Origin: Monosiga brevicollis MX1
Lineage: Eukaryota > Opisthokonta > Choanoflagellata > Craspedida > Salpingoecidae
Assembly (NCBI RefSeq): GCF_000002865.3
Contig: NW_001865045.1
Location: 685,594 to 749,593, forward strand
Length of the DNA stretch: 64,000 nucleotides
Direction of reading: 5' to 3'
Part shown: piece by piece, positions 26,113 through 47,899 of the stretch
How the letters are laid out: each line of letters begins with the position of its first letter
How positions within the stretch are numbered: position 1 is the stretch's first letter
Notes under the pieces: generated by a model
The model's input: only the letters and a program-made list of their open reading frames with translations
Told to the model about the DNA's origin: nothing
Database searches by the model: none
Translations under genes and position numbers: made by a program

Positions 26113-29100
26113 ATGGCGGCACGGCACGCCCGGGCCGCGATCCTGGTTGTGGCGGCCCTCCTGTGCGGCAGTGCCTCGGCCTTGGTCGTGTACGAAGCTG
26201 ACTATATTCTCGATGACCCCATGGTCTGGACGCCGCAAAACTCACCCTACGTCATCGAAGGCAACTTTTTCATCGAAAGCAACGGGTATCTGCGCATCAC
26301 GGCCGGTGTCGAGGTCATCACCCGCCCAGACGCTTACATCAACGTCAAGAACATTTTGCAGATCGAAGGCATACAGGGGCTGCCCGTGCGCTTCCATCCC
26401 AACACCTCCACCACCACGGTGGGTCAGTGGCGTGGCGTCATCTTCACTACGGGAGCCAAGCCCTACGTCCCCGACACCACGGGCGCTGCACGTGGCTGCC
26501 TTTTGGAACATGTCACGTTTGATAACCCGGGACGCTCCGCCACGCCGGCCATCAACGTTCAAGGCTCTGCCCCTCGAATGCTTGGCCTCACCGTCAACCA
26601 CGCCCAGGATCATGGTGTGTACATTGCCAACTCGGTCGAATCCTTTGACATCGAAAACAGCACCTTTTACAACAACTACCGTGCCCTCGATTTGCAAACC
26701 AGCACCTCGTGCCGCACTAGCCCCTGCTCCCTTTCTGGTATTACCGTTGAAAACGATCGTGAGTACGGCATGTACCTGTCTGGCCTCTCCGGCAGCAGCA
26801 CACTCACCGTTCGTGACAGCGCCTTTATCAACACACAGTCCAATCTGTACGCCTACACCACCTACGGCTCCCTCTCCTTCATCAACACCCTCTTTGACGG
26901 TCGGGGTGTTCGTTCACGGGGCCTTTTCGTCTACTACGGCGGTGTTCGTCTCGAAAATTGTACTTTCACTGGCTTCACCTCGTGGGCCGTGTCACAACAG
27001 TACAGCACCACCGCCCCTTTTCAGGCGCGCTACAACCACTTTGTCGACACGGCCTACGGTCTCGAATACACACCTCGCTCGGGCTACAGCTCTCAATCCG
27101 TTTTCTCACATAACACCTTCCAGCGCCTCACCGAGCAAGCCCTGAGTCTGTCCGTCTGCGCCCCCGCCGATGACCGCCTTGAAATCCGTCACAACATGAT
27201 TCGCGACTCCAGCTTTACTGCTGCCCAAGCCATATCGATCACCGAGACTTGCAGCGCAACCAACTCTTCCTTGCCTTTTGAGAACAATCGCATTGTCAAT
27301 TGTACCATCATTCAAGAGGTAAAGCACGAACAAGAACTTGCAAAAATCGTATCTCTGTGCGCCCTCACCTTGCCCGCTCGCCCCATTCGCCCCTTGCTCC
27401 TGACCGGTCTGTCTGCATTTGCCTTGACCCATCACCAGCTCCTGCGAGTTCAACCAAGTGCCGCAACCTCCATGACCCTGCGACACAATTCTTTCGAGGA
27501 CATTACATCGACCTCCAGTGCTTCAACTGCCCTAGCAGTACAGTGGGCCCCTCAAGCTGATGACAACATAGAGGTCAGCATTCATGCCAACCCACAGCTC
27601 GCTCCATTCTCGGCCAGTCACGCTACTCTTAGCTCTTTTGGCCTCAAAAACTTGATGCCTCTGTCTATATGATGCTCCCTTGTAGATTACATATAATCGC
27701 TTTGTTAATGTCTCGCTGCCCACCTATTTTTACCTCTTCGGCTCGGGCGTGGCTGCCCTTCGAACAAGCGCACGCTTTCAGCTGGGCGTCAACTTTATGA
27801 ACAACATCAACAACATTGATGCCTTCCGTTCACGTGTCCTCGATCGCCGCACTGATATATACGGAGCCTATGTTGAGTCCTTTGCCATCCTTTTGGCAGA
27901 TCCGCAAGACTGCCAAGCCCTCGACACTTGTTCGGCCCTTCCCACCGCCATGGACACCCGTCCCTTTCTACAGGTCAATGCCTTTGCAGTGCTTCGCCGC
28001 TCCACCACCGACGTTCTTGATTTCCTGGTTCTATTGTTTTGGCAATTCTGTTGCTGCCTTGCCCCAGCTGTCCCCAAGCGCCTTTCATGGCACATTACGC
28101 CCTGTCCCCCACAACTGATATTATGGCCCTTTTCCGCCTCGGCTTTTCTTTACTTTTATTATTTTTTTTTTTTAACATAGGACAACGTGCTGCATGGCAT
28201 CCTCCGGAACGATCTCACCCTCTCGCCTGATACAACCTATGAACTGAACGAAGCCATCTTGATTCAGTCCAATGTTACACTTACCATCCCTGAGGGTGTG
28301 CGCATCGACGCAGGAGGTATCACTTGCTTGCCAGAACCAACTTGTTCTTCCCCACCCCCTCGTTCTCTATACTTGCTGCCTCTTGCGCGCTCTGTGTCTT
28401 TTGCTATTGCATACAAGTCACAACGCGTGGAACATTTTGGCATCTTCAAACAAGCATATCTAACACATTGGATGTTTGTGCCGGAACTAGTCAATGGCAT
28501 GATTCTCGTCGCGGGGCAGTTGAACATCCGAGGCACGGCGACCAAGCCCGTGGTCATGACTTCAAGCGCAACTCGTTTGGCGGCTGGCACCTTTCTTGAC
28601 TGCGTCACCTACACGGCCGGCGCGGACATCTCACAAGTTACCGGCACCATGACCACATCGGCGCATTGCACCAACCTCTGCCGTCGCGCTCGCCAAGCAT
28701 ACGCGAGCGTTCAGAACAGGTCAGGACAGTCTTCCGCTCAGCCTTGTCTACATTCAAATGGGACGGTCAACATGGCCCCGTGTCCGCTGCGTTGTCACTC
28801 ATTGCCTTTTTTGACCTCTGGTCTATTTGTTGATGATCCTCTGTTTCTCGGCACCACTTTGTGGCCTTGCGTTGCTCGCCCTGACCGCCACCTTCCAATT
28901 CCCCGTCTGGGCACGTAGCAATCGCTGCATCTGTGCCAACGTCCATGCAGCGGACCAGTCGCGCTCTGATTGTACTTACAGATGCCAGGGTGATAACAAT
29001 GAGTTTTGCGGTGGCTACAGTTCCATGCGCACTTATGCGACAGGTGAACCACTTGCTTGGCGGGGCATTGTCTTCCTCTCGGATGCCAAATCGGCCAGTG

Positions 29101-32100
29101 TAGCCCACCTCGATATTTCGTACACTGGTGGCACCGTCTACAACCTGGCTGCCATTCGCTCGTACGCTGCCACCGCAATTAACCTGACTGCCTCCACCTT
29201 TCACGACATGCGAGGCCCCGCCCTGCAACTGGATGGCACTGTTGCGCAGCGCAACGTGTGGACCAATCTCACGTTCTCCAACATTGCCCACCACGCAATC
29301 CACTTGACGAACCAGGCGTGTCGGGAAGGGTGCAGCTTGGAACACGTGCACGGCAATAACATCAGCCTGGCCTTGGTCTACACTAGCTTCGACACATCCG
29401 GGACTGCAGATAGCACCGTGAGCATGAACCATGTCACCATGGACACTGTTGGTGGTGGTCGGCTCTGGGGCTTTGGCTCAACGTCGGCCGCCTTGAGCAT
29501 CACTCGTGCTCGTGACTTTCAGTACGACAACGGCCAAGCAACTCGCACCTACGCATCAGCCATTGCCACCAGCTACAGTGCGGCGAACATCACCCGCTCC
29601 GTTTTCACCGAGTGTGGCAAGGAAAGCGGCAACTTTGCCGTCTACCTGGATGACTTTTCCCCTTACACCCAGCTCGCTCAAGTGACAGACAATGTGTTTC
29701 GTGACAACGTCGGGGCTCTATTTATGCAAAACCTGTACAACTATTACCACCGCATGCTTGTAGCACACAATGAGTTTACCGCCAACGGTGGCACCTATGT
29801 GCTCGACCTGTCTCTAACTGGTCGTTTCCGCAATACTTTCGAGCACACTCAGATTGAAGTTCGCGACAACATCATTGCCAACAACACGGCAACGCAAAGC
29901 ATCATCAACCTCGCCTGCACAAATGTATACTCGTCGTCAGTTCTGTCCTTTGCTGGCAATTCCATCCGCAACAACACGGCCGTGGATGCCATTTTTAGCC
30001 TCTCCACCTCGAGCAACATGCGTCCCGAGGTCGTCGCCAACGAGATTGTGGAAAATTCGGCTGCCGTGGGCATTCGTTTGGCTCAGAGCGGTGCCGTGGC
30101 TGGCCGCCGACCCCAGCTCTGGCATAACCGGTTTGCTAACCTGCTCAGCACGGGCTACGAACTTGAAACTTCCATCGCTGATGCACAGCTTCCCATTAAT
30201 GCCAGCCTCAACTATTGGAACACCATTCAACTTCGCAGGGTCAATGACAAGGTCTATGATCTTTTGGACAGCGGCAATCTAGAGCTGGTGAGCGTCCAGC
30301 CATTTCTAGATGCCCTTGGTCAAGTCGTCGTGATCGCTGCCGAGGACGAGCTGTTACAAGCTGATGGCAGTCTGTCGGGCCTCCTCTCGCAAGACTGGAC
30401 CATTCCCGCCAACTCAACCTTTGTTGTTTCCGGCATGATTGTGGTCCAAGCCGACGTCGTGCTGCGGGTTGAAGAGGGTGTGACCATGCACTTCACCGAG
30501 GCGGGTGGTCTCAAGGTACAGGGTGCGTTACAGGTCCTGGGCACTGAGGCCAACCGGGTCGTTTTTACTCATGCCAACGTCTCACGCGCTGCGGCCTTGA
30601 GCAATGCGCTACCCGCCTTCCAACCAACCTACATTGGCTGCTTGCCCGATGCTGACTTTGACATGTTCCTGCCCATCACACTCTCCCGGCGCACTGCCGA
30701 CGCCTGCGTGGCTGCCTGCTATGCGGCCGGCTTCCCCGTGGCCGGCGCGCGCCGTAGCTCGCAATGCTATTGTGGCCGTGGTTGGTCGGATCCGACTGCT
30801 GCTGTCAGCGATGGCACCTGCTCGTACCAGTGCACGGACAATAGCACGCAGCGCTGTGGTCAATACTACTACTCCTCGGTCTATGCCACGGGCCTTCCAA
30901 AGCGCTGGCAGCAAGTTGATTTTGCCGACAATGCAGCCGGCTCTTTTATGGACGGCAACAGCTTTATCAATGGGTCCTTTGTAAACCACCTTCATGTCTC
31001 GTACACAGGTCTCACTGCGCTGGCCGTCAACGGTGCTGGCGTGGCCATGCACCATGTGGATGTACACGCTTCAGCCGGGAACTGCGTTGCTTTTTCGGGG
31101 GATTCACAAGGCACACCTGTGGATCTACGCAATTTGACTCTGACGCGATGCTCATCATATGGGCTGGTCATGAGCAGCAACGCCTTGGAAGACGGCGGTG
31201 TGCTTGACGGCATTACAGCCCGGCACGTGGGGAACAACGGTCTGCGCCTGCGCGACAAGAACAGCAACACACACCGCCTTAGTGTTCGCAATGTTCTGGT
31301 TGAGGACGGCGCGAGTACCGGCGTGTACCTCTATACAATCTACAACCTTGAAGTGCAAGACATTGTTGTACGCCGCACTGCCGGGCACGGCATCTATGGC
31401 TATGATTTGGGCCCGTTTGACTTGATGCGCGTCCACATCGTGGACGCTCAGGGTGCGAGCAACAACTACGGTGTGTTTATGGAAGACATGCAATCAGCTT
31501 CTCAAATGTTCTCCAATGTCCGTGTGTTCAACAGCCAGGGAGGCCTGTACTTGTCCCCGAGGTATGGATTCTCCAATCATATTGTCGTATCCAATCTCGT
31601 CGTGGACAATTGCACTGGCGACAAGGGCTACTACTTTGATTCGACCCGCATTTACGGTGGTACTTTCCGATTCGAAGACAGCACCATCGCCAACAGCACC
31701 TTGATCAATGCGCTGCACATCGACATTAGGTATCAGAATAACCAGCAGCACTCCTACACCCGCAATCGCATCGAGCACAACACTTTGAGCGACAGCGTTG
31801 TTCGACTGGAGAAAACGAACTACAATGGTGGCATTCAGTTCAATCTAACTCACAGCGTACTGCGCAACAACTCGGCGCCATATGGCATTTATCTACCACA
31901 ACCAACGACATCCTCAGGTGGCATACAGAGGCCTGATTTCTTTTACAATGTTTTTGACAACAATGTTGAGTATGAACTGTACACCACCATTACGGACGCC
32001 AACATCCCGGTCAACGCAACCCACAACTATTGGGGGACGGACATTGAGTATGAAATTGTGGTGGACAAGTTGCACGATATCAGTGACGACAGCAACTATG

Positions 32101-35100
32101 AACGCATCATCTATTTTCCCTATTTCGTGGATGCCGCGCTTGACAGCTTGATAGATTTGGATGCACAACGCCTTACAATTGTTCTGCCGGATGGTTCTCT
32201 TGGCGGCGTGGTCACGGGTCATGAGATTCTGTCCAGCGCACGTGCTACCAATGGCACTTTTTACGTCAACTCGTCTCTGGTCGTCATGGAAGGCGCCATT
32301 CTCGAGATTGAGCCGGGACTGCGCTTTGTGCTTCGCCCGGACGTTGCCATCAATGTCAAGGGCACCATTATCAGCCATGGCACGACGAGCAATCCCATTG
32401 AGTTTACGTGCGACCCCGCCTCTGCTTTTGCTCCAATGCAAGCTCTGGGCTGCACGGGCTCGTCGAGTACCAGCACGTATCCTTGGTACCGCGACTCGAC
32501 GAGCATGACTCACGAGAGCTGTGTCAACTTTTGCGCAGCACGTGGTCACGCTGTCGCATATGTGCAGAGAGCATACGATTGCTTCTGCAGCAATGGCGCG
32601 CCCGCCGACCTGAGTGACTCGCTGAGCGCCTGCACCAGCACCAGCTACCGCTGCCGGGGTAATTCCTCGCAGTTTTGCGGTGCCTATAGTGCTGGCTTGG
32701 TATTGGGTACGGGTGTGTGCCAACACTGGGGATCGTTGACCTTTGATGCCGCGAGTCAAGGCACGGAACTTCACCCAGACTTCTCTTACAAGAGTGGCAA
32801 CATCCTCAAGCACACTCGACTGTCCTATGGCGGCAATGCGGTGGCCCCTTTTTCCGCTACGGTCATTGTAGAGGGTGACACGGTGCTGATGGAGGATGTT
32901 GAGGTCGTCTACTCGGGATCGCACGGCATTGCACTCCAGCCAAGCAATGCTCAGGTGCGACCAAGCGTTCTAAACCGCCTCAACATGACGCTCAACCAGG
33001 GTCATGGTCTCTCGGTCACGGCTCGGGCTTGCGAGGTGGCTTGTGAATTTGAGGACATTGATGCACGGCTCAACCGATACAACGGCTTGTACATTGACGC
33101 CTCCGGCTTCAACTCACCCATCTCACTGAATGGAGCCAACTTCATTTCCAATGGATGGAATGCCATCCACAAGGATGTGTCACAGGGTAACTCAACCGCT
33201 GCAGGCGAGGCTGGTCTGCGTTTGAATTGCCACTCTAGCTCAAGTGTGCCAGTAGCGATGGCTCGGCTTGTGGCTCAGCAAAACTATGGCGCTGGTATCT
33301 ACTTTCAAAGCTGTCTTTTTCACCTGCTGGACAGTGACGTCCAGGAGAATGGTGATCACGACAATGACTATGCCATTTATGCCGAGTCCCCGGCGCCGGG
33401 CACCATCATCTCCCGCAACAACGTCAGCCACAGTAATGGTGGCATTTATATCACCAACGCACGAGAGTTGACTGTTGCAGACAACGAGGTATGCACCGCT
33501 TGCCGTGGGCCTGCTTTGTTTTTTGATTTTTTGTTTTTTTGTTTTGTTTTTTTTGTTGTTGTTTTCTTGTTTTTTTTGACCCCAGTGCCAGCGGCGGTGT
33601 CTCATCCTGTCCTGCCATCTGCACAGCTCATGCAACTTCAAGGTACACATGCGCTGTATCTCTCTGTGCATTACAACTTCTACAGTGCCACCATTCGAAT
33701 CACTGGAAATACACTGCAGAACAATGACGTCTCCCATGTGGCATACATCTCCGGCTCGTGGCGCACCTCATATGCGGCTACGCTGGAGATTAGCAACAAT
33801 GATATCTTGGACAATATTGCTTCAGACAGCATTGTGTACCTCTCCGGATACGGTGGCTGGCCGGTCATCTCCACACACCAGTATGCATTCACGGGCAACC
33901 GCGTCTTGGGCAACCGCATCGATGACATTCGCAAGGGCGCCCTGCAAATCGATGGATACACCCCCAAAGTCGACTACAACTTCTTGGTCAATCCAGACCT
34001 TCTGACCGAGATCATCAGCGCTGTACGATGCACATCCGGTTGCTCGAGCAACTGTCCCTCACAATGTGCAGGCAATCTGACCGCCACGGACAACTGGTGG
34101 GGCTCAGCAGACCCCGCCTTTGTCTCGACCCGAGTCGTGGATGCAAGAGATGACACACAATTCCCCTTCATTATCACCACCCCGCATCTGACCTCAGCTT
34201 CTTTTGACTGCTCGGCCGTTAACAACTGCTCGGGCCACGGCACGTGCAGCCGCCCACAAATGTGTACCTGCGACTCAGGTTATACGGGCACGGACTGCTC
34301 GAATTTCACCTGCACGGACGTGTTTGGCTGCAATGCGAACAACGCAGGCGGTGTGTGCATTGGACCCAACACTTGCAATTGCACCGAGTCCTGGGAGTCA
34401 GCCTACTGCACCACGCCAATTTGCCGCCAGAGCTGTGAGCAGGGCATCTGTGTTCGCCCTGACCAGTGCCAGTGCATTCAAGGATGGGCCGGGAATCGCT
34501 GTGACGAGTGCGCGCCTGACTACGCCGGCAACCGCTGCAATATCCGCTGCCCCGCGTGTGCCAACGGTGGTCATTGCTTGGATGGACGCAATGGGACAGG
34601 CCAGTGCGTGTGCCCTGCCCCATTCACAGGCTTGTCATGCACCAATTGCCTCGAGGGCTTTTTTGGGACGAGTTGTGGGGCTCTGCCGGCCACCCGAGCG
34701 GTGGTTCCAGCGTTCGGCTTGGATGTGGGTGGGTACACAGTGGCAGTCCGAGGGTACAACTTGTCGCCCTTTGACAACCACATGGTGCGATGGGGCCCTG
34801 GGACGTCTCGAGACCGGGCCTGCACCTTTGAAGCCACTGATCGCTTGCTGTGCGAGGTGGCGCCCAGCCCGAGTGGCGCCACAGATCTGACTAGTGTGAC
34901 CGTGACGCTCTACATCAACGGTTCGCTTGTCCAGTATGGTAATTCCCTTACCTTTCAATATCAAGCTGTCTGCCCCGATGATGCATGCGTTCATGGCACT
35001 TGTTTCCAGCGACAATGCGCTTGCTTGCTTGGCTGGAGCGGCGCCAACTGCTCTATTCCTGTTCTGGCGCCCGTGTTGGTGCCGGTGACCCGCGTGACTC

Positions 35101-38100
35101 TGCGCGAAGGCGAAGTCGTCTATGAAACACCGTTCAGCGTGTCCACAGGCACGTCTCCTCTGTTTTGGCGCATGACCGGCGCACCTTCCGGTCTCACGCT
35201 GGGAAGCTCGTCAGCGGCTTTGTCGTGGAACAAAGCTGTGGCGCGTGCTGATCCCTATGGCGTGCGCGTTTATGTGCGCAATTCCATCGCTGAGGTCTTC
35301 ATGGACGTTCTCATCGATGTCCCGCTACAATACGCCGCCTCGGGGGACGTCGTCGATGTGGGTGGTCAAGTTGTATCTGGTGGTCCTCAACAACTGGAGG
35401 TCAAACCAGGAAGCTACGTGCAAGTTCGTGGATCACTTACACCCACCTTCAACGATAGCGCAGTAGGTGGCCAGGCTGTCTCAATCTGGCTGCTGCGCCA
35501 AGGTTTCACACCGCAAGAAGTGGTGGTCAACAGCATTTTCAACGGAGTCTTCAGCTACTATTGGACTTTTTCGCAGTACGTTCCACTCTTCTCCCTGCTA
35601 TCTTATGTTAGATGTGCCGTTGCTCAAGGCGGTTTGTCTGTCTTTGTCTATCTTTGCACTTTTATTATTATTTTTATTATTCTTATTCTTATTATTATCC
35701 CATTTGACAGGAACCAGGCCGGACGTTTTTTCCTGGGTACCACCCACCCAGCCAACCGACTGCGCTCCGAAATGCAGAGCACGGGCTACTCGCTTGTGTT
35801 CCACAACCTGCGTATCACCAGTGGTATCTCTATTTCAGGTTACCCGGGCCTGAAAATGGGACGCGGGCGCATCGAGAATCTTGGGGATTTGCCGTTGACG
35901 AACTTGACCTACCGCTTGCCCGAGGGCCTTCCAGCAGTGCTGGCAAACATGACCGTGACGTTCGAGTCCGCACAGCTAGCTGCGCGTAGCTCAATGAACG
36001 TTGACATCTCGTGCCATGCTCCGGGGCCCTTTTTTTCAGCTAGTTTTTACATCGTTATTCAGACACAGGAAACGGGCAGTCGCGAGTTTGGGCTGTACAC
36101 AACCATAACCGTGCGCGATCCAGAACCTCGCCTTGAGTTGAGCCCTTCGCGACTGGCTGTGGACATGACACGTGGGGAACAGCAAACCTTCGCCATCACC
36201 GTCAGCAACACGGGTGGTGCGGCTACTGGCCCTTTAAGTGTGCGGCTCGCACAGAATGCGGTCGTGTCCTTAGGCTCGCCCCCGGCCATTAGCAACATTG
36301 CACCTGGCAACTCAACCTCCTTTAATGTCGTTGTCTACCCTAGCCTCTATCAGCCCATCGGACGCATTGGCGGCACCCTAGTTGTATCCAACAGCCTTGT
36401 GAGCAAAACGCTGAGCTATGACGTCAACATCATTAGCTCCTCAGTGGGTAATCTGACCATCGTGTGCGAGGATGAGTTTACCTTTTTTGACCCAGCTGAG
36501 CCACGCCTCGAGGGTGCGTATGTACGAATTACCAGTACCGACGGCCGCATCAACACATATGGCTACACGGATGGAAATGGTACCATTGTGTTTCCTGATA
36601 TCCCGGAAGCTTACTACAACATTCGCGTAACGGTACGTCCTTGCTCGTCCAGCTGCGTGAAGCCCTTCGAAATGTGATATTTTGAACGCTTGGGTCATAT
36701 TTTACTGCCCCCTCCTTCCGTGTTGCGTGGTGTACCTTTGTATTTTCTAGGCATCTGGACACGCGCCCCATGCTGAAACCGTGCGTCTAGTGCCGGCGGG
36801 CCGCACGGTGCGAGCTTTCCTTGCGCGTCAAGCCGTGTCCTACACGTGGTCGGTGACTCCTGTCACCATCACTGAATCGTAAGTCTACCTATATACACCT
36901 TGGACGATGCGCCGTATCTGGGTGAAACCTACAGTCAGCACCCTTGTACCGTCCACGCCTCATGCGGATTGGCGTGGCATGCTGCAGATACAAATTTACG
37001 GTCGAAGCGACTTTTGTCACCCGAGTGCCCATGCCAGTGGTGACGGTTGAACCCATTGTTGTGGACCTCACGGCTCTTGAGCTTGAAGCAACCGAGCTTG
37101 GTGTGACCTACTACAACTACGTTGTTACGAACCACGGCCTCATTCGCGCCAACGACTTCAACCTTGTGCTACCGGCCGGCCACCCCTACCTCGAGTTCAG
37201 CTACCCCACGCCGATTGGTGGTATTGAGGCCAACACCTCGGTGGTCGTACCCGTCACCGTGACCTACGTCGGGGATGCTCGTACCCGCCGCTCCAGCGGC
37301 GGGTGTCACACCGGCGCGGCTGCGTATTCGGTTGAATGTGCCGGTACTCGTTGTAGGTTACACTGCACCCATCGAGACTTGCAGAGATTGCGGGGAAAGG
37401 CAGAGGCTGCCGCTCTTAACTTTTAACTTTGACACAAATTACTCACAAAGTTCCCTTGGGTGCTACCTTCCTGATCTCGCCTTCCTGATACCCAGATACT
37501 TTCATTGGCCTCACCTTTTCGGGTGGCGCCCCTTGTTTTTCATCGGGTGATGGACGAGGCTGTACGTCGTAGTCGTTGTCCTCCTCCCTCTTCACAGTAC
37601 AAACGACGCATCTGACTCATAGACCTGGCCAAATGTGGCATTCTCTGCAGATGGTCACTTGTGGTTGGGTGGCAATGGCGGTGGCTCGAGTTCATCGCGC
37701 CGCACCGGCGAGCCCAATCCGGGGAGCTATGCAGTCGTTCCTTCAAATACGAAGACGTTGTCCTTCTGCGACCCCTGCGTCAAATCCCTTGTGCGTTTCG
37801 GACCCCCGCACAGGAAGGAAATGACGGCCCAGAACATTTGCTTAATACTGCTTGTTATGCTCAATACCATGTCTTTTGCTCCGTGCCCTAACCATTGCAG
37901 CTGGAGTGCCTCATTGGCTTCGTACCTGGTGCAGGCTGCGCTTACGGTTGGTGCTTTGTGTTTCGCATCCTACCCCCTCTCACACACTCTCTTACTCTGC
38001 TTATCGCGGTTTGACTGCACTTGATTTTACTTCTCGTGTACCTCTTGGTGCTTCAACGTAATTGCAACGTATTCAGCTTGTGGTGAAGGTGCCTCGGCTG

Positions 38101-41100
38101 CCCCTGGACGCTCACGCTGGGGCAATTTGTATGGCGGTACGTCCATCATTTCACGTGCGCTCTCGCTGCAAGCAAAGTCAAAGTCAAATTTTATCCAATC
38201 ATCTCTCGTCGTGGGATCAAGAGCTTGTCTTTGTACTTGATGGTTGGCTTTCACGTGGCACTAACACTATTTCCTTTTGGTCACTCTGACTACTGCACAG
38301 TGTCCAACTGCGTGCTGGCTTGTTTGGGGGGGCCTGTGGCCAGTGCTGCCATGTGTCTCTGGACCGTGGGCCGTGACTGTCTTGGCCTGCCCTTGCCCGC
38401 AACGCCATCGCGCCGTCGCCGCGCAACCTCACCCTTGGTGCAAGCCCGTATGGAGCAGACTGTTGCGCTGAGCGAAGCGTACCGAAATCAATTGTCCATT
38501 TTTGCCCTCATCTACTCGGGCCCATTGTATTTCACAACCGCTGATGGCCTCACACTCAATGAAGATGCCAACAAGTGGTTGAGCCTTAACGACAAGGAGT
38601 GGCAAACCCGCGTGGGTGCCTTCTGGGCGGATACCTCGGACGGTGGCATCATGTTAACCCCAGCCGAATGCCGCAACCTGACTGATGCGCCCCCGGCCAC
38701 TTTCTCGGTTGAAGGCGTTCTCAGTGCTGAAGCAGTCGCACACTTTTGCGCACGGTGGAACAACACACAAGTTTATTTCGACCAAGGCATCACCTCCATG
38801 GCCGATGTACCCGAGGGTTGGGATACCAACTTCATTCCCCATGATGAATACTATGCGCGCTGGCAGCAACTCCAAGCCGATTACAGCAAGCTGCCACACA
38901 ATCCTGATGGAACGGCCAGCTTTGACGATCAAATGTATCGTAGCTACATTGCCACCGAGGACGCGGCCCTTGAAGATGAGGTAGGCAAGTGCGTGGAGGT
39001 GCGTGTTCGAATTGAACAGGAAATGACGCTCACGCGCACAGCCTTTGAAGGCTCACTTGAGCTTACCAACGATGCCGAGGACCCGCTGGAGAACATTCGT
39101 GTTGTCCTTTACATGCTGCCTCATGAAGAACGCAATGTCAGCCGCAATGTGACACATCTCTTTGTCATTGGTCAGCCGAGCCCCGTTTTTGCTGGAGGCG
39201 TTAATGGCAATGGCACGGTGCCTGGTGCAAGCTCGGGCAAGGCCACGTGGCTCTTCATGGCGTTGCGTGACGCCGCCCCGACTGAAGCGGTGCTTTACGA
39301 TGTAGGGGGCGAAATCACATATACTGTGCGTGGTACAGAGTTTCGCATCACCATGTATCCAGATACCATCACCGTCTATCCGGACCCGCGTCTGCAGATC
39401 AAATACTTTTGGGATAGCATCGTGTATTCTGACGATCCTTTCACAGAGGAAGTTGAGCCGGCCATTCCATTTAGTCTGGCAGTCATGATTCATAACGACG
39501 GAGCGGGCACAGCGCGGGACATGCAAATTGTCTCTGGCCAGCCCGAAATTATTGAAAACAAGGATGGCCTTCTGGTCAGTTTCACCATTGTGCGGTCTCG
39601 CCTCAACTATGAGGAGATTTCAACTTCGTTGAGCGTGACGGTTGGTGAGGTGGCACCATACAGCAGCTCGGTGGTGCGCTGGGATATGGTGTGCCCCTTG
39701 CAAGGCCAATTCAAGGACTTCAATGCCACCATGGAGTACGAAAGCCCCCTGGGAGACCAGCGTCTTTCTATTGTGGACAATGTAACCATCTATCCTCTTG
39801 TTCGAATTGTGAGGTTTGAAGCAGAGAACGACGACGTGCCCGACTTTTTGACAGATGATTTTCTTGGAGATGCCATCCCAGACACGCTGCACAGCAGCTA
39901 TGATAATAACGAGTACCCGCTGTGGACGTTTGTGGACCATTCTGCCGTCAACGTTTCGGGCCGCGTCGCCAATCCCCAAGGTGGTTTTTCAATCACAGTC
40001 ATGGTTCCCATCACCAACGCTCCTACCTACGTTCGCATCGACGACCCAGTAGAAGATACGGTGCGCCTCTCATCAGTGCAACGTCTTGCCGACGGCTCGG
40101 GGGGCACGCTGCCCGGCGAGAACGTTTGGCGCACATACCGCGTCAAACGATCCGCCTCAAAGGTCACGCCGCTGGATTACCTGCACCTCTTTGATCACGC
40201 GTCAGCGGGTGTATATGTTTTGAACTTTGACGACTTGGCCCCCGTTTCACAGCTTACCGTGATTGATGTCAGCGAGTCTGACGCCACGGTCAGTGTCTTG
40301 GCTCATCAACTGTGAAATGTGCAAACTGCCGAAGCGTTCACCACCCGCTGAGTGTTTTCGAGCGCCTGCGCACCACTGGAGGCTCTCGGTGGTTTGGTTT
40401 GGTTTTTGGTCTTGTTTTTCACTTTCTTTTGTTTTTGCCTTGGTAGATTTTGTGGCTGCCATCGATTGGTGCCAACACGTACCGCATCACGGCTCGCCAA
40501 GCAGGAGCAGGGCAGGCATTTGCACCAACCTCAAACAACAGCGTCACAACTGCGGAGAGCTTTACGGGTGAGTTTGCGCCCATCTCATGTGCTGAGTTGC
40601 GTTTTTCACGTCATTTGCTGCATTTATTCGCAATTCACCGCTGCAAGGAGCGTTGCTGTTTCTCTCAACCATGTCAATGGCATGTGCGCCAAGAGTATCT
40701 GTCGCTGATGATTGTGTGTGTATGGTAGTTGAGGCGCTGCAACCAGCAACCACATACGAGGTCCGCGTACAGGCGGGTGTGGATGGTCAATTCGAGGCGG
40801 CCGGTCAGACGGTGCAACTCCTGACGCCTGGAACGCGGCCCTCCACCACGCCTGAAGCCACAGCCACACCAACACCAACTGTCACCTCCACGCAGACGGC
40901 GAGGAGCACGAGCACCGATGGCCCTGGTAGCACGGGAGGACACATTAGCTCGACGACGAGCCACACCAACGCTGTGGGCTCGACCACTTCGGTAGTTGGT
41001 GGTTCAACGCCCCACGGTGCGAGCACGTCGACCCCTGTGCCTGCCTCGACCACAGTAGCCACTTCAACCACGATGGCGTGGGCATCCATCACGCTCGACT

Positions 41101-41686
41101 ACGACATTGCCGCAACAGCCAATCGCTCCCTGCTCAACGATACAGCCGCCATGCGCTCGCTCATTGCGGAGCACCTAGCCAAACTTGATGGCTGGTCTAC
41201 ACTCGATGCCTACGAAATCGTCGTCTCCCCCCTTGGTGGGGGCGTCTCATTTTATCGCATTCAAGTCCGCTTTCGTGGCGCAGGGGCCGCCACGCTGGAA
41301 TCTGAGGTGCGCGGTTCTTCGCGGTCATGTCTTGTTGTGCTTGTGCGTTTGTTGTTTCGGTCGGTGCCTGTTTGACGTTCACGGCTCACTGCGTCTGTAT
41401 ATGGTGCCGGTCTATCTGTAGCTGGAAGAAGAGGGCTTGGAGCTCAGCGAGCTTGGGCTGGCGTCGACTGGCCACACCCCATCAACCACACAAGCTGCCA
41501 ACGAGGCCTCTTCGGATGACAGCAACACTGGCATTGTAGTGGGTGTGGTGGTTGCTATTGTCGTAGTACTGATTGCTGTTATCGCGTTTTTCGTCCATCG
41601 AGCTCGCTCCGGGTACGTCTGCGAACAAAATGCGTCTATGACTTGACGTCACTTGGCTATGCTCACTTGCGTTGCTTTTCTGTTTT

Positions 41687-41752
<66 letters not shown>

Positions 41753-41942
41753 TGCCTGTCGCCTTGGTAGGCCACACAAATCGGCCACGAAGCTTGGAGA
41801 CAGCAACACCAATGAGTACGCCAATCCGGTGTATGCGTCCAACATGCAACTGGAGAATATGTCTGAACCGCCCCTGACGCGCACACCGTCGGTGGTTCTC
41901 CGCGGCTACGACGGCCCAGTCTGTATGTCTGACTCTGTATGA
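26113..41942 (+). CDS. Giant single-pass surface protein: parallel beta-helix/WSC modules, EGF, IPT, CARDB-like region, TM and NPxY tail
   Basis: The first ATG (26113) opens a signal peptide (AAILVVAALLCGSASA). Four tandem modules follow, beginning near 26.19, 28.19, 30.37 and 32.19 kb. Each starts with a hydrophobic strand series and a GT-x3-PV-x-FT-like strand, continues as parallel beta-helix rungs, and ends in an N-Y-W-G-like block (LNYWNT, HNYWGTD, DNWWGSAD). Modules 2-4 carry a Cys-rich WSC domain (28.59-29.04, 30.62-30.89, 32.44-32.71 kb). EGF-like repeats (34.21-34.68), an IPT/TIG-like domain (34.70-34.96), another EGF, CARDB-like beta domains and a carboxypeptidase-regulatory-like domain (36.44-36.83) follow. 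A long beta-rich region (38.3-40.3), an FN3-like segment, a Thr/Ser mucin-like linker (40.83-41.07) and a SEA-like domain (41.08-41.31) come next. The TM segment (GIVVGVVVAIVVVLIAVIAF) lies near 41.53-41.60. The tail contains EYANPVYA and ends MSDSV. The total is roughly 4,400 residues in about 15 or more exons; exons between 37.27 and 38.30 kb are unresolved. The role is probably adhesion or recognition (inference). Confidence 0.8.
41689..41750. repeat. 62-base poly-T tract in the last intron of the giant gene
   Basis: An almost pure T run sits in the intron (about 41612-41769) between the TM exon and the cytoplasmic-tail exon. It would serve as an extreme polypyrimidine tract. Its length may be inexact because long homopolymers assemble poorly. 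Frames of poly-F or poly-K across it are artefacts. Confidence 0.9.
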
Positions 41943-42817: not shown

Positions 42818-45143
42818 ATGGGCGGGATAGTGCCCGTGCAAGCGCTCCTACTGGGGGTATTGGCGTTGTGTCTCGTCAGACAGTTGCCATGCGCGGCGGC
42901 GGATATGCCTTGCGTCCTCGATGAACGGGGCATGGGAAGCTATCGGTTCCCAGAGCTGCCCCAGCTCAAGGGTTGGGTGGCTTCCCAAGAAACACAGATT
43001 GTGGCCATTGATGACCATCGAGCCGGCTTGGCCGTGGTTCAGCGTCATCCTGCGACAGCGGTAAGCCCGCTGCTTATGGCATTTCGCGCTGGTGGGAGCA
43101 CGCGACTGAACTCACGATCTTGATCTTGTGAATATTGAATCAACTTTTGCTCGATTGATTGAGTAGACCTGTCCAAAGGGTCGGGCCACCGTCACACAAT
43201 ACGTGTGTGACAGAGCGCTCACTGGAGTGCAGCCCCGCGGCGCCGAGGGCTGGCTTGACCCGTGGTGCGTGACAGTCCAGCGCCACGAAACGCAGGCTGC
43301 CTGTCGCGCCGAATGGAGCAAAATGCCATGCGCCACGAACCAAGTCCCCGTTCCTACCCCTGAACAAGCCGCATATCAGCGTCATGAGATTATGGGCGTA
43401 AGTTTGACGCCGAAACTATTGCATTGACCTTGATCTTTTCATGAGGAATATCGCTGCAGATCCTGCCTTCTGTGTGATTGCCGCTTGCTTTTGAACGACT
43501 CTTTTTCTCCACTTACCCAAGACCTGCCCCGCTCTGGCTTACGTCTTGACTTGGCGGCGTTGCTTGATCGCATGGTAGTTGACACACTTTAACATGGCTA
43601 CTTTTGTGGAGGACGGCGATCCAGCTTGCAACCCCACCAACTGGAATGTGGGTGTCCATAGCTCACACGCCTCCCTTTTTGACCCCACACGGCTAAACAT
43701 CTCCAACTGGGTTGAAAACTACCGGGCTGTGGGTGCCAAGCACGCCGTCCTCACCGCCAAACACGGCTGCGGCTTTTTACTCTGGAATACCTCGACCACC
43801 TTGCCAAATGGAACGGAGTATCCCTTTGCAGTGGCACGCAGTTCCTACCCAAGCTTTCAGCGCGACGTCATTGCCGAATTTAGCTCCACCTTGGGGGCAG
43901 CCGGCCTGGGATATGGCTATTACTACAGCACTGGCAACAACTACTTTCTCAACCGAGATGGCTTCAAGCGCATTGGCAACCCCTTGCCAGGCCAAGTAGA
44001 TTTAACTGACGAACAATATAATACCCTGGTCTTTGAGCACGTCAAAGAGCTGTGGACGCGCTTTGGATCGCTTTTTGAAATCTGGTTTGATCATGGGGTC
44101 TCTGCGGATCAGGATCAGCAGCTAGCCGCTTTGCTCAAGCAGTATCAGCCCCAAGTCGTGGGCTTCAACGGACAGGGGATCATGACCAGCCCCATCAAGT
44201 TCGTACCAAGCAAACCCGCTGCTCGATGCGCTTTTTTGCTTCACTCTTCTTGACTTCACCTGCGTGTGGGTTTTGTGCTGGTCTTTCAATTGTGGGTGAA
44301 ATGTGCCGCTACACTGCGTACTTTCCTTACCTGTGTGCCTGCAGGTGGGTGGGCACGGAAAGCGGCTTGGCTGGTTATCCCACTTGGGCGACGGGCTGCT
44401 CTGTTGCCCAAGGCGATCCAACTGCCAGCGACTACTGTCCCGTTGGGGGTGACACCTACGTACGTCCAGCGATTGAACAGGGCATCCTGACGCCTTTTCA
44501 TCTCACTCTCGTGCTGCATCGCAATGAACACTCCTAAACTTTGAACCCTGCAGGTGCAAAATGGCCATTGGTTTTGGCGGCCTGGATTTGCTCTTCGCTC
44601 CGTGCAGCAGATGGTGGAGGTGTGTTGGAGCGACGAGTCCTTGACCGCGGTCATCTGATCGCACTGACAAGTCATCTCACCACTCCGCGGCAGGTGTATC
44701 ACATGACGGTTGGCAACAATCAGGTGCTTGAGCTGGACTTTGCGATCGACGACACGGGCAATGTACCAAGTGATGCCTCGGCGGTGTACCACGCACTTGG
44801 TGCATGGGCTCGAGCGTGCTACGGCATGCCAGTAGCCAATATGAGTGGCAACAGTAGCTCAGTCTTGCTGACCTTGCCATCGCCAGCCACTCCTGTTGAT
44901 CGATTTATCTTGCAGGAAGACATTGACTTTGGCGAGCGTGTGCGACAATGGCACATCGATGTGCAGGTGGAAACCGGTGACTGGATGCCCTTTGCCAATG
45001 GCACGGCCATCGGCCACAAACGCATTGTCCTGGGCTCGGGGCCAAGCAGTTCGCTTACTGCAGCCCGCCTAACCGTTGACTCGGCCGTAGCTTCGCCCGT
45101 CATTCTCGCCTTTGCGGCTTTCAAGCCCTGTCCCGATCCCTAG
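42818..45143 (+). CDS. Secreted alpha-L-fucosidase (GH29 family)
   Basis: The enzyme hydrolyses terminal alpha-L-fucose from glycans. The ATG at 42818 gives a signal peptide (GGIVPVQALLLGVLALCLVR, then CAAA). An N-terminal Cys-containing domain of about 150 residues precedes PTPEQAAYQRHEIMG. The GH29 barrel follows after an intron: LTHFNMATFVED, YRAVGAKHAVLTAKHGCGFL and GLGYGYYYSTGNNYFLN. The strand SLFEIWFDHGVS (near 44070-44100) contains the likely nucleophile Asp. Later come VVGFNGQG, VGTESGLAGYPTWATG, VQNGHWFWRPG and, after another intron, VGNNQVLELDFAIDDTGNVP. A C-terminal beta domain ends FKPCPDP at 45143. The pattern resembles the plant/bacterial GH29 subgroup. About six introns are present. 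The promoter sits against the inverted-repeat element. Confidence 0.87.
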
Positions 45144-45607: not shown

Positions 45608-47899
45608 ATGGCTGAATTTTCAGCATTGATGGAGCAAATGAAGCAAATGCAGCTCCAAAGCACAAGCGAGGAACAACATCGCCACATCCAAGCTCAGATC
45701 CAAGCTCTCATTGAGCTTGAGCAGCAGAGGCTGGCCGCGGAAGCCGAGGAGCGCAAGCTCGAGCACGAAAGGCTGGCCGCGGAAGCCGAGGAGTGCAAGC
45801 TCGAGCACGAAAGGCTGGCCGCCGAGGAGCGCAAGGAAGCACAGCTCAAACGGAAAACAGGTCGCGACAAGGTTCGTCGTGTTTCGTCTCGATTCGTTAC
45901 AACCGACAAGGCCTGCTGCCTCTGTTGCTCACGTGGTCCGGTTGACAGATTAAAGTCTTGAAGGGCATGTTTGCCAACCTTGGGTGGCAACACGAAACGG
46001 CTTTATGGAACAAGTTGATGGCAATGGATGATGCTGGTTTTGAAGCATTTGTCGACGAAGTCGACAACATGCCCTCTGCCGAGAGGATGAACGAAGTGTA
46101 CCCCTGGAAGGTGTGTTTGTCGTGACCTGGCCCCACATTACGTCTGCACTTGGTCATTACTGTACCCGCGCGCGCCTACTACAATCGGTAAGCACCTGTC
46201 GGGCAAGACTCACGCGCAGGATCGTCTTATGGTTGACATGCGTGTGCAGGCTTTATATGGACAATGCTACCACCGTCCGACTCACGTGGCCGGATGCCTT
46301 CAAAGGCGCCCTCACAAACCTTGTCTCTGACCACTGCAAATGAAGTTCTTGGCTCCGTGGTCGCAGAGCTTCCCTGCAGCCACCACTACCTTGCAGCAAA
46401 AATTGTCAAGCGCATTGATGATCTTTGCGCGGATGACCAGTGGGAGCGCAGCGAGGCGCTGACGAATGGCCTTCAGTGGGCGGCCAAAGCTCAACGTGAC
46501 TCCCAGCTGACTGAACTCCAGCAGGAGCCCAGCATTTCTTCGCGAGTTTCCATCGTGTTGCAGCGCTACTTTGGTCTGAATGTTGTCCATCAGTACGCCA
46601 TCGGTTCCCACAGCACCCACGTTGATTGGGCGGGCTTTGACGACAACCACCACGTTGTCGTCATGGGTGAGTGCAAAAAGAAGGAGCAGCCGTTCCATGA
46701 ATACGGGGGCCAGGTTGCCAACGAGCTCTTGCGACTGGGGGCCATTCCAACGTTGTATGAGAGCAACAGCAACATACCGCTGCCTCGGCGGAAGGACATT
46801 TTGTGGCCCATCATCAACATCAACGTGGTGGGAGACCATGTCAGCGCCTACCTGGCTTTGCATGTGATTGATATTCCATGGGAGCAGTTTGAGAGTTGCC
46901 TGGCAGAGATTCTGCCATTGTTTGAGATTGACGGTTTGAACGCGAAGCCGAAGACATCGGGGCTGTTCTTCAGGTGCCGCGAACTTTGAAAAAAATCCGC
47001 GGCAGGTAGAAAGCATCTTGCGAGCTTGCAAGGAATTTGTGCAAGAGGATTTGGCGTACTTGCTGGATCGGGCAGATGCTCGGACTGTATTGCGGCCACG
47101 GCTGCCTCCACAACCATTTCCTTGCCCTTTTGACCACCTCTGCAAGTGGAATCTGAAGGATTCGTATGGTCCCAACGTGCAGGTCTACAGCATCGGGAAG
47201 CAAAACAAGGTGTTCAAGCACTTTGACTACTGGGGACGCACGGCAAATCTCTGCAGCAGCCTCTCGGCACAGTGTGTGTCTTACCAAGATCGCCGCTACC
47301 CGCCTGACGACCGAATCTTGACAATACTCAGTCAACTGGATGTGGCAGGCTCATTCTATCAGAAGTGGGAGGTGGCGAGGCTTGCAACTGCCGTGGATGT
47401 GCTCAGCTACCCTTACGTGAAGCCGGCAGACACCGTCGAGATTGAGCAACTGGTCCAGGTCATCTACCAACTGAAGGCCATCCATAGCGTTGACTTTGTG
47501 CACGGCGACATTCTTCCTCGCAACATTCTTTTTTGCAGCGACTGGGAAGGGCATCCTGCGGCCTTTCTCATCGACTTTGATCTCGGCAGGTTTCTTGCTG
47601 CTAATCCTGCCCACAACCCCGTCTATGCCTCCAATTTTGCCAGGGAAGGAGAGCCGCTGGAGCCTTTTCGTCACCCATTTGCCCGGCGGAATTTGCCAAT
47701 GCAGAAGGAGCACGATGGCTTTGCCTTGGCACGTGTCATGGAGAAGTTTTTGCAGGACGACGAGGCTCGTCAGCAGCTGGTGGCTGCGTTGGAAGAGCTG
47801 CAGCTGGATGACGCTGCCACGCTGTGTCAGAGGTGCTCGCTTTTGCCGCCAGACAATGTTGCTGGGCTTGGCAAGGCCACGGGAAGTCCTCGACGTTAA
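45608..47899 (+). CDS. Coiled-coil / PD-(D/E)xK nuclease-like / protein-kinase-like fusion (Crinkler-type architecture)
   Basis: The first ATG (45608) opens a Gln/Glu-rich helix with a duplicated EAEE-KLEHERLAA unit (45733-45820), a probable coiled coil. After introns near 45.87-45.95 and 46.11-46.25 kb, a domain contains YFGLNVVHQYAIGSHSTHVD, with WAGF next and VVVMGECKKKEQPFHEYGG at 46648-46710. The D...ExK spacing (VDWAGF, GECKK) is that of PD-(D/E)xK folds. A further short intron near 46.95 kb leads to a kinase-like domain. It keeps HGDILPRNILF (47501-47533) for the catalytic loop and LIDFDLGRFL (about 47568-47597) in place of DFG, but no clear HRD. The stop is at 47897-47899. I recall this nuclease-kinase pairing from Crinkler/CR effector families of oomycetes, fungi and protists. 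Function here is unknown; defence, conflict or signalling roles are guesses. The domain calls are motif-level only. Confidence 0.65.

What the first reader, a model, noticed from the sequence alone, without database searches (positions are those of the whole stretch)
26113..34200. Four tandem parallel beta-helix modules with WSC domains nested at one fixed point
Modules start near 26.19, 28.19, 30.37 and 32.19 kb and share a plan: strand series, GT-x3-P-V/I-x-F-type strand (GTATKPVVMT, GTEANRVVFT, GTTSNPIEFT), a W-x-x-I/L-x-F strand (WRGIVF, WQQVDF, WGSLTF), helix rungs, and an N-Y-W-G-like end. In modules 2-4 a WSC domain sits exactly between the P-V strand and the W strand; module 1 lacks it (LPVRFHP, then WRGVIF). 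This implies module duplication after, or loss of, one WSC insertion. I know of no described receptor with this layout. It could be a cell-surface recognition system for bacterial or algal glycans, since WSC domains bind polysaccharides in some proteins.
Basis: partly seen in the sequence, partly recalled or inferred. Interest (0 to 1): 0.8.

Follow-up and report, generated by a model that had tools for sequence, protein, structure and literature searches.

The report
Anakonda-like receptor with nested WSC domains
A single-celled relative of animals makes a giant surface protein of four stacked beta-helix modules in which a small WSC domain is slotted into the same loop where the insect junction protein Anakonda (Bark beetle) carries an SRCR domain, a layout that may bear on where animal cell-contact proteins came from.

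Summary
The window is Monosiga brevicollis, gene MONBRDRAFT_24936: signal peptide, four right-handed beta-helix modules, EGF and other domains, one transmembrane helix, NPVY tail. Three WSC domains lie in modules 2-4 between the cap's last strand and the W strand; in all three a TG is followed by four residues and the W. A module 3 model shows one beta-helix with the WSC looped out.

"No described receptor with this layout" is wrong: animal Bark beetle/Anakonda proteins share the plan with SRCR at that point (221 of 231 detected caps in 86 proteins). A rotifer Bark junction finds only this gene in the M. brevicollis genome. A second gene there, an adhesion GPCR, has a WSC-like stretch at the same point.

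Bacterial tandem modules have the same cap and W strand with a short bare loop. Trees do not settle whether choanoflagellate and animal arrays share one origin, and reverse searches did not return this protein. It is Anakonda-like in layout, not a Bark family member. Glycan recognition is plausible and untested.

The parts
26113..41942 (+). whole gene MONBRDRAFT_24936: signal peptide, four beta-helix modules, EGF and fn3 domains, weak He_PIG, CARDB and CarboxypepD_reg resemblances (below their cut-offs), Ser/Thr-rich stretch, transmembrane helix, cytoplasmic tail (exons after 37267 approximate; P0001 ends differently)
   Evidence: spliced model to 37267; database protein P0001, 4479 aa; Pfam; 3' exon frames
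26182..27973 (+). module 1, beta-helix without WSC; cap 26245-26397, W strand 26428-26445, 10-residue loop between
28181..30320 (+). module 2, beta-helix with nested WSC1; end of cap 28526-28561, W strand 29058-29075
28583..29045 (+). WSC1, split by intron 28720-28918; only its second half is matched directly by Pfam
30321..32144 (+). module 3, beta-helix with nested WSC2; cap 30417-30569, W strand 30906-30923
30618..30893 (+). WSC2
32145..34202 (+). module 4, beta-helix with nested WSC3; cap 32256-32408, W strand 32727-32744, NWWG end 34080-34106; intron 33489-33626
32433..32714 (+). WSC3
34209..35575 (+). EGF repeats (above cut-offs), an IPT/TIG-like stretch (my reading, no Pfam hit) and a He_PIG-like stretch (18.1 bits, cut-off 24)
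41530..41595 (+). transmembrane helix; with the signal peptide the only places of P0001 where a 19-residue window exceeds a mean hydropathy of 1.9
41811..41843 (+). cytoplasmic NEYANPVYASN, an NPxY-type motif (PTB-binding consensus recalled, not from a call)

Best explanation
This is a single-pass choanoflagellate surface receptor or adhesin built like animal Anakonda/Bark. Four tandem right-handed beta-helix modules form a long stiff rod. Each module begins with a conserved N-terminal cap of a kind common in bacteria. Just after the cap, one turn of the solenoid tolerates extra chain: sampled bacteria have a short bare loop there, the choanoflagellate plugged in a WSC domain (modules 2-4), and animals plugged in an SRCR domain (three repeats as a rule). 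The rod holds three copies of the recognition domain in fixed register, so that weak sites act together; the NPxY tail passes the signal inside. Shown: module and insert anatomy, the shared insertion point in animals, the short loop in the bacteria sampled. Predicted by model: a continuous helix in module 3. Inferred: rod geometry, multivalent ligand binding (most likely a polysaccharide of bacterial prey or of the cell's own coat), tail signalling.
Against: No ligand, expression or localisation data. The WSC part of both models is of low confidence (blocks under 60; 33-65). Reverse searches with a rotifer (3223 candidates) and a nematode Bark (2486 candidates) did not return P0001, and the latter did return P0093, a beta-helix protein without SRCR that groups with Chloroflexota in my trees. 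The Bark junction profile A3 scores Chloroflexota caps as high (62 bits) as M. brevicollis (55.7), so the cap resemblance is not exclusive. No lectin family found in P0001. Signalling through NPxY is from motif only. Module 1 has no insert.
Confidence: 0.6

Rival explanations
1. On origin (compatible with the best explanation). Common descent: the last common ancestor of choanoflagellates and animals already had a tandem beta-helix surface protein; the docked domain was swapped or gained separately (WSC versus SRCR). The gene would be a distant homologue of Anakonda.
For: Only gene hit by a Bark junction in the whole genome; only Bark-type protein beside itself in 7990 candidates; in a reduced cap tree the arrangement with M. 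brevicollis and Bark as one clade was 9.3 log units better than the free search, p-AU 0.665; same insertion point; with one Bark-only profile the module 3/4 junction (63.4 bits) beat all other non-Bark rows of that set (best 52.2, P0093).
Against: Chloroflexota caps score as high with profile A3. The junction tree rejects neither Bark (p-AU 0.415) nor bacteria (p-AU 0.366) as partner. Reverse searches missed P0001. The searches returned no other choanoflagellate or non-bilaterian relative. Long branches.
Confidence: 0.45
2. On origin (compatible with the best explanation). Independent origin: animals and M. brevicollis each took up a bacterial-type tandem beta-helix array and each inserted a cysteine-rich domain into the same permissive loop.
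For: Bacterial arrays with tandem caps and W strands are widespread, some with NxWG ends (P0093); the loop varies in length; trees do not reject it.
Against: Needs the same unusual event twice at one of roughly 45 inter-strand turns (my count, so about 1 in 45 if turns were equal, which they are not).
Confidence: 0.45
3. On function: the rod works as a homophilic adhesin, as reported for Anakonda, and the WSC domains mediate protein-protein contact rather than glycan binding.
For: Anakonda mediates homophilic adhesion with its triple-repeat ectodomain (PMC11698045, introduction); a yeast Wsc paper suggests homotypic sensor clustering through Wsc domains and names Kremen's complexes (PMC9024836, passages); Kremen is the best solved-structure match of WSC3 (E 3e-4; for WSC2 another protein, which I take for a fungal WSC, comes first, E 0.019).
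Against: Cell lifestyle data not examined; the CTLD that with the transmembrane part binds M6 in flies was not found here.
Confidence: 0.3
4. On function: a surface polysaccharide-degrading enzyme, since the fold matches lyases, epimerases and tailspikes.
For: Many of the top structural matches are polysaccharide-active beta-helices.
Against: No catalytic family above cut-off in the parts scanned by Pfam; shared fold shows no activity; the list also holds a non-enzyme, NosD.
Confidence: 0.05

Closest known systems
Anakonda / Bark beetle (Drosophila tricellular-junction protein; family members in insects, nematodes, rotifers and scallops)
   Same: Tandem beta-helix repeats with the same cap, W strand and NxWG end, one cysteine-rich domain nested between cap and W strand; transmembrane protein
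   Different: SRCR instead of WSC; three SRCRs in 66 of 86 proteins and repeat 1 has its insert too; CUB and C-type lectin-like domains; no EGF/fn3 stem named there
Bacterial tandem right-handed beta-helix proteins (Chloroflexota and other phyla; L027-L137, and P0093 of unnamed source)
   Same: Cap, GT-x4-I-x-F-T-type strand, W strand, tandem copies, NxWG end in some
   Different: Short bare loop: W within 39 residues in 191 of 198 caps and within 29 in 61 of 62 matches; no eukaryotic stem or receptor tail seen
WSC-domain proteins (yeast Wsc1, fungal SiWsc3, animal Kremen)
   Same: WSC domain; three copies as in SiWsc3
   Different: There WSC domains are not known to me nested in a beta-helix turn (recalled, not searched)
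M. brevicollis adhesion GPCR at G000:C38, about 46-53 kb
   Same: Two beta-helix caps; first module without insert, second with a WSC-like stretch at the same point; EGF follows
   Different: Pfam does not call the stretch WSC; then a weak HRM, GPS and 7tm_2 instead of stem and single helix

Membership tests
Bark beetle/Anakonda | tandem beta-helix repeats with cap, W strand and NxWG end | tested here: met
   (module 2 ends NYWN, module 1 without a clear NxWG)
Bark beetle/Anakonda | SRCR domain in the repeats | tested here: not met
   No SRCR at E<=0.1 in P0001; the 3 SRCR matches found in this genome lie in one frame on another contig; WSC sits at the SRCR point
Bark beetle/Anakonda | C-type lectin-like domain before the transmembrane helix | tested here: not met
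   No lectin family at E<=0.1 in P0001; a diverged one could be missed
Bark beetle/Anakonda | signal peptide and single transmembrane helix | tested here: met
   hydropathy of P0001
Bark beetle/Anakonda | modules group with Bark repeats to the exclusion of bacterial modules | tested here: inconclusive
Bark beetle/Anakonda | homophilic adhesion at cell vertices | not testable with these tools
   literature only
WSC domain (PF01822) | profile score above the curated cut-off | tested here: met
   83.3 bits in the exon 6 frame, cut-off 27.8, three stretches; 76.7 bits in P0001. Singly by six-frame search 50.3, 45 and 27.1 bits, the last for the intron-split WSC1
WSC domain (PF01822) | PAN/Apple-like fold | tested here: inconclusive
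   low confidence over the insert
Right-handed parallel beta-helix | solenoid fold | tested here: met

The most novel reading that the evidence does not exclude
A tandem beta-helix receptor with a fixed domain-docking loop predates animals. Choanoflagellates loaded the loop with WSC for capturing polysaccharides, animals reloaded it with SRCR and turned the rod into the tricellular-junction adhesin Anakonda; in choanoflagellates the same docked module was also fused to an adhesion GPCR. The loop is a natural plug-in socket for recognition domains.
Probability: 0.33. Interest if true: 0.82.

Novelty: new variant of a known kind. Interest (0 to 1): 0.6.

Why it matters
Anakonda organises tricellular junctions in flies; I recall no vertebrate orthologue. 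In the listings that I saw of my searches (open-licence PMC papers only, and searches showed 10 of 1,998 and 10 of 98 papers) no title or abstract start dealt with a choanoflagellate relative of it. A choanoflagellate protein with the same nested plan and another plug-in domain is a concrete candidate for the kind of surface protein from which it arose. It also points to one loop of a common bacterial fold as a site where different recognition domains have been inserted.

Tried and rejected
Bacterial WSC donor: PF01822 in 294 genomes of the phylum of a Stieleria locus gave 0, but none of 14 control genomes rang either, so absence is not shown. Exclusive Bark kinship from scores: supported by one profile, not by the second, so dropped as proof. 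Reverse searches from rotifer and nematode Bark proteins did not list P0001. Trees: 106 rows/88 columns left module 4 and the paralogue in an open fork, joined modules 2 and 3 to each other, and put module 1 beside a bacterial row and P0011 repeat 3. In one search I removed 5 long-branch eukaryotic rows (M1, paralogue m2, P0011 R3, P0004 R1 and R2) and 8 bacterial ones, kept every second remaining bacterial row and dropped duplicates, leaving 52 of 106 rows; that choice was mine and favours a cleaner tree. Enzyme reading: no catalytic family found. PF28492, listed in the precomputed domains of P0001, of some Bark proteins and of P0093, is not in the held Pfam, so its meaning is open. The bacterial set was gathered with patterns for the loop motif and is biased against inserts; of the 32 loci, 12 come from 8 genomes picked through that set and 20, some overlap, and at least two of the 62 matches do not look like caps. 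Left out of the Bark set: five SRCR proteins without the Beta_helix label (P0013, P0055, P0056, P0057, P0059) and P0093. Of the 16 SRCRs not within 110 residues after a detected cap 12 were printed: some models lack the cap, several start 117-132 residues after one, a few lie farther off; the 10 caps without an SRCR were not looked at one by one. The cap profile used throughout was seeded with M. brevicollis, Bark and P0093 caps, so detection of those is by construction.
Full report
What it is. The window lies in a 39.5 Mb genome. A protein search returned the window's own protein as MONBRDRAFT_24936 of Monosiga brevicollis MX1, P0001, 4479 aa. My spliced model of the first ten exons (26113-37267) has GT-AG introns and no stop over 3281 aa. 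In this part P0001 differs in keeping 27319-27438 as coding (40 aa); I take that stretch for an intron because it has GT-AG ends and does not look like beta-helix to me, but this is unproved. P0001 has two places where a 19-residue window exceeds a mean hydropathy of 1.9, the signal peptide and one helix near residue 4360, followed by a tail with NPVY.

The modules. Caps were found with a seed profile (which included M. brevicollis caps) at P0001 45-95, 602-652, 1205-1255 and 1818-1868, and W strands at 106, 752, 1368 and 1975. The distance from cap end to W is 10 residues in module 1 and 99-112 in modules 2-4. The WSC fills that space; a conserved TG at its end is followed by four residues and the W in all three. 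WSC scores 83.3 bits over three stretches in the exon 6 frame against a cut-off of 27.8; WSC1 is split by an intron and matched there in its second half, 27.1 bits alone. With WSC removed, modules align at 18-27% identity and every pair lies far above 200 shuffles; modules 2, 3 and 4 score highest with one another. This fits one insertion before the duplications that made modules 2-4, or a loss in module 1.

A second gene. The exon 6 frame against the own genome hits one other place, C38:47895-48791 (E 4.5e-11). Its frame has two weak caps (16.8 and 23.8 bits). The first module shows no such insert; the second has a cysteine-containing stretch between the strand KPVVLT and CHSWGTF. That stretch aligns to WSC1 at 31% over 71 positions (z 8.6 over shuffles) but weakly to WSC2 and WSC3 (z 3.3 and 4.5), and Pfam does not call it WSC. 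Downstream frames give EGF, a weak HRM (17.9 bits, cut-off 26.2), GPS (41.7 bits) and 7tm_2 (24.6 and 62.6 bits): an adhesion GPCR; the exons between were not spliced. In a 2025 catalogue of choanoflagellate GPCRs the words WSC, beta helix and pectin lyase occur 0 times in the main text (PMC12716839, word counts and passages).

The animal counterpart. The only other protein reaching E 0.001 among the 7990 scored candidates was a bdelloid rotifer protein with Beta_helix and SRCR (E 1.1e-7). Pairwise, two module junctions of P0001 align with it (E 4e-12 and 2e-10). A search with a nematode member returned 83 proteins, itself included, among them many named 'protein bark beetle' or 'bark beetle-like' from moths and butterflies, flies, a beetle, a bug and scallops. 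P0001 was not in the answers of that search or of one with the rotifer protein. [quoted passage not shown] I find the SRCR at the same place: 221 of 231 caps in 86 proteins are followed by an SRCR, 215 of those 221 then by a W-strand motif, 221 of 237 SRCRs start within 110 residues after a cap, and 66 of 86 proteins have exactly three SRCRs. The SRCR profile was grown from one Pfam-located stretch in a script.

The bacterial background. P0093, of unnamed source and grouping with Chloroflexota in my trees, has seven caps each with a W 24 residues on. A scan of prokaryote contigs by loop-motif patterns gave 232 relatives, 79 loci kept, from many phyla. In 198 caps of these loci 191 have a W within 39 residues; of the other seven, five have a Y or F in the same place, one is unclear and one is masked. 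In 32 loci fetched by the Bark junction profile (20 without any loop pattern, 12 from genomes picked through) 61 of 62 matches have a W within 29 residues. 21 of 301 genomes of the phylum of a Chloroflexota locus had a match at E 1e-9. So the turn is short and variable in the bacteria sampled; rare inserts elsewhere are not excluded.

Shared origin or not. Bark-only junction profiles score M. brevicollis 63.4 against at most 52.2 for other non-Bark rows in one set, but a second profile gives 55.7 for M. brevicollis against 62 for Chloroflexota. The tree of 106 units is unresolved. In a reduced set of 52 the arrangement with M. brevicollis plus Bark as one clade is 9.3 log units better than the free search, p-AU 0.665; with 23 junctions neither partner is rejected (p 0.415 and 0.366). 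I therefore leave common descent and separate uptake about equal.

How it probably works. Rod plus spaced recognition domains is the simplest reading. Fungal SiWsc3, three WSC in a row, binds beta-1,3-glucan although its single domains lack an obvious pocket (PMC9024836, passages). In flies the Anakonda ectodomain is homophilic, and its lectin-like domain plus transmembrane helix suffices to bring down with M6; no lectin domain was found here, so an M6-type partnership is unlikely. The tail motif suggests signalling or endocytosis; this is inference.

Standing. The layout is Anakonda-like; membership in the Bark family is not claimed, since SRCR and lectin domain were not found. Of PMC11698045 I read the introduction and passages; of PMC8006247, PMC9024836 and PMC12716839 passages; other papers were seen as search listings only.

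Noticed in passing
G000:C38, about 46.4-52.7 kb (L007 4275-10000, L008 2-724): An adhesion GPCR of M. brevicollis (EGF, weak HRM, GPS, 7tm_2) with two N-terminal beta-helix modules and a WSC-like stretch, a relative of the window gene.
   Followed up: partly
window 27319-27438: The public gene model keeps a 120-base stretch with GT-AG ends as coding in module 1 that looks like an intron; its C-terminus also differs from the open frame that ends at 41942.
   Followed up: partly
G000:C56:3416696-3417568: Three tandem SRCR domains in one 479-aa frame: the choanoflagellate has SRCR domains, but none was found in the beta-helix loop of this gene.
   Followed up: no
G000:C41:45719-45916 (L002): The only other WSC domain that the search listed in this genome (45.4 bits), in a 375-aa frame.
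   Followed up: no
window 43579-44250: Alpha-L-fucosidase-like frame (56.9 bits) downstream of the receptor gene.
   Followed up: no
window 46940-47896: Weak protein-kinase or Kdo-kinase resemblance (19-20 bits, below cut-offs).
   Followed up: no
P0001, P0004, P0011, P0077, P0084, P0093: All carry the precomputed Pfam label PF28492, which the held Pfam copy lacks; it may be a new family for this cap or module.
   Followed up: no
window about 55.5-56.1 kb: A run of N (gap or masked) beside a long simple repeat.
   Followed up: no
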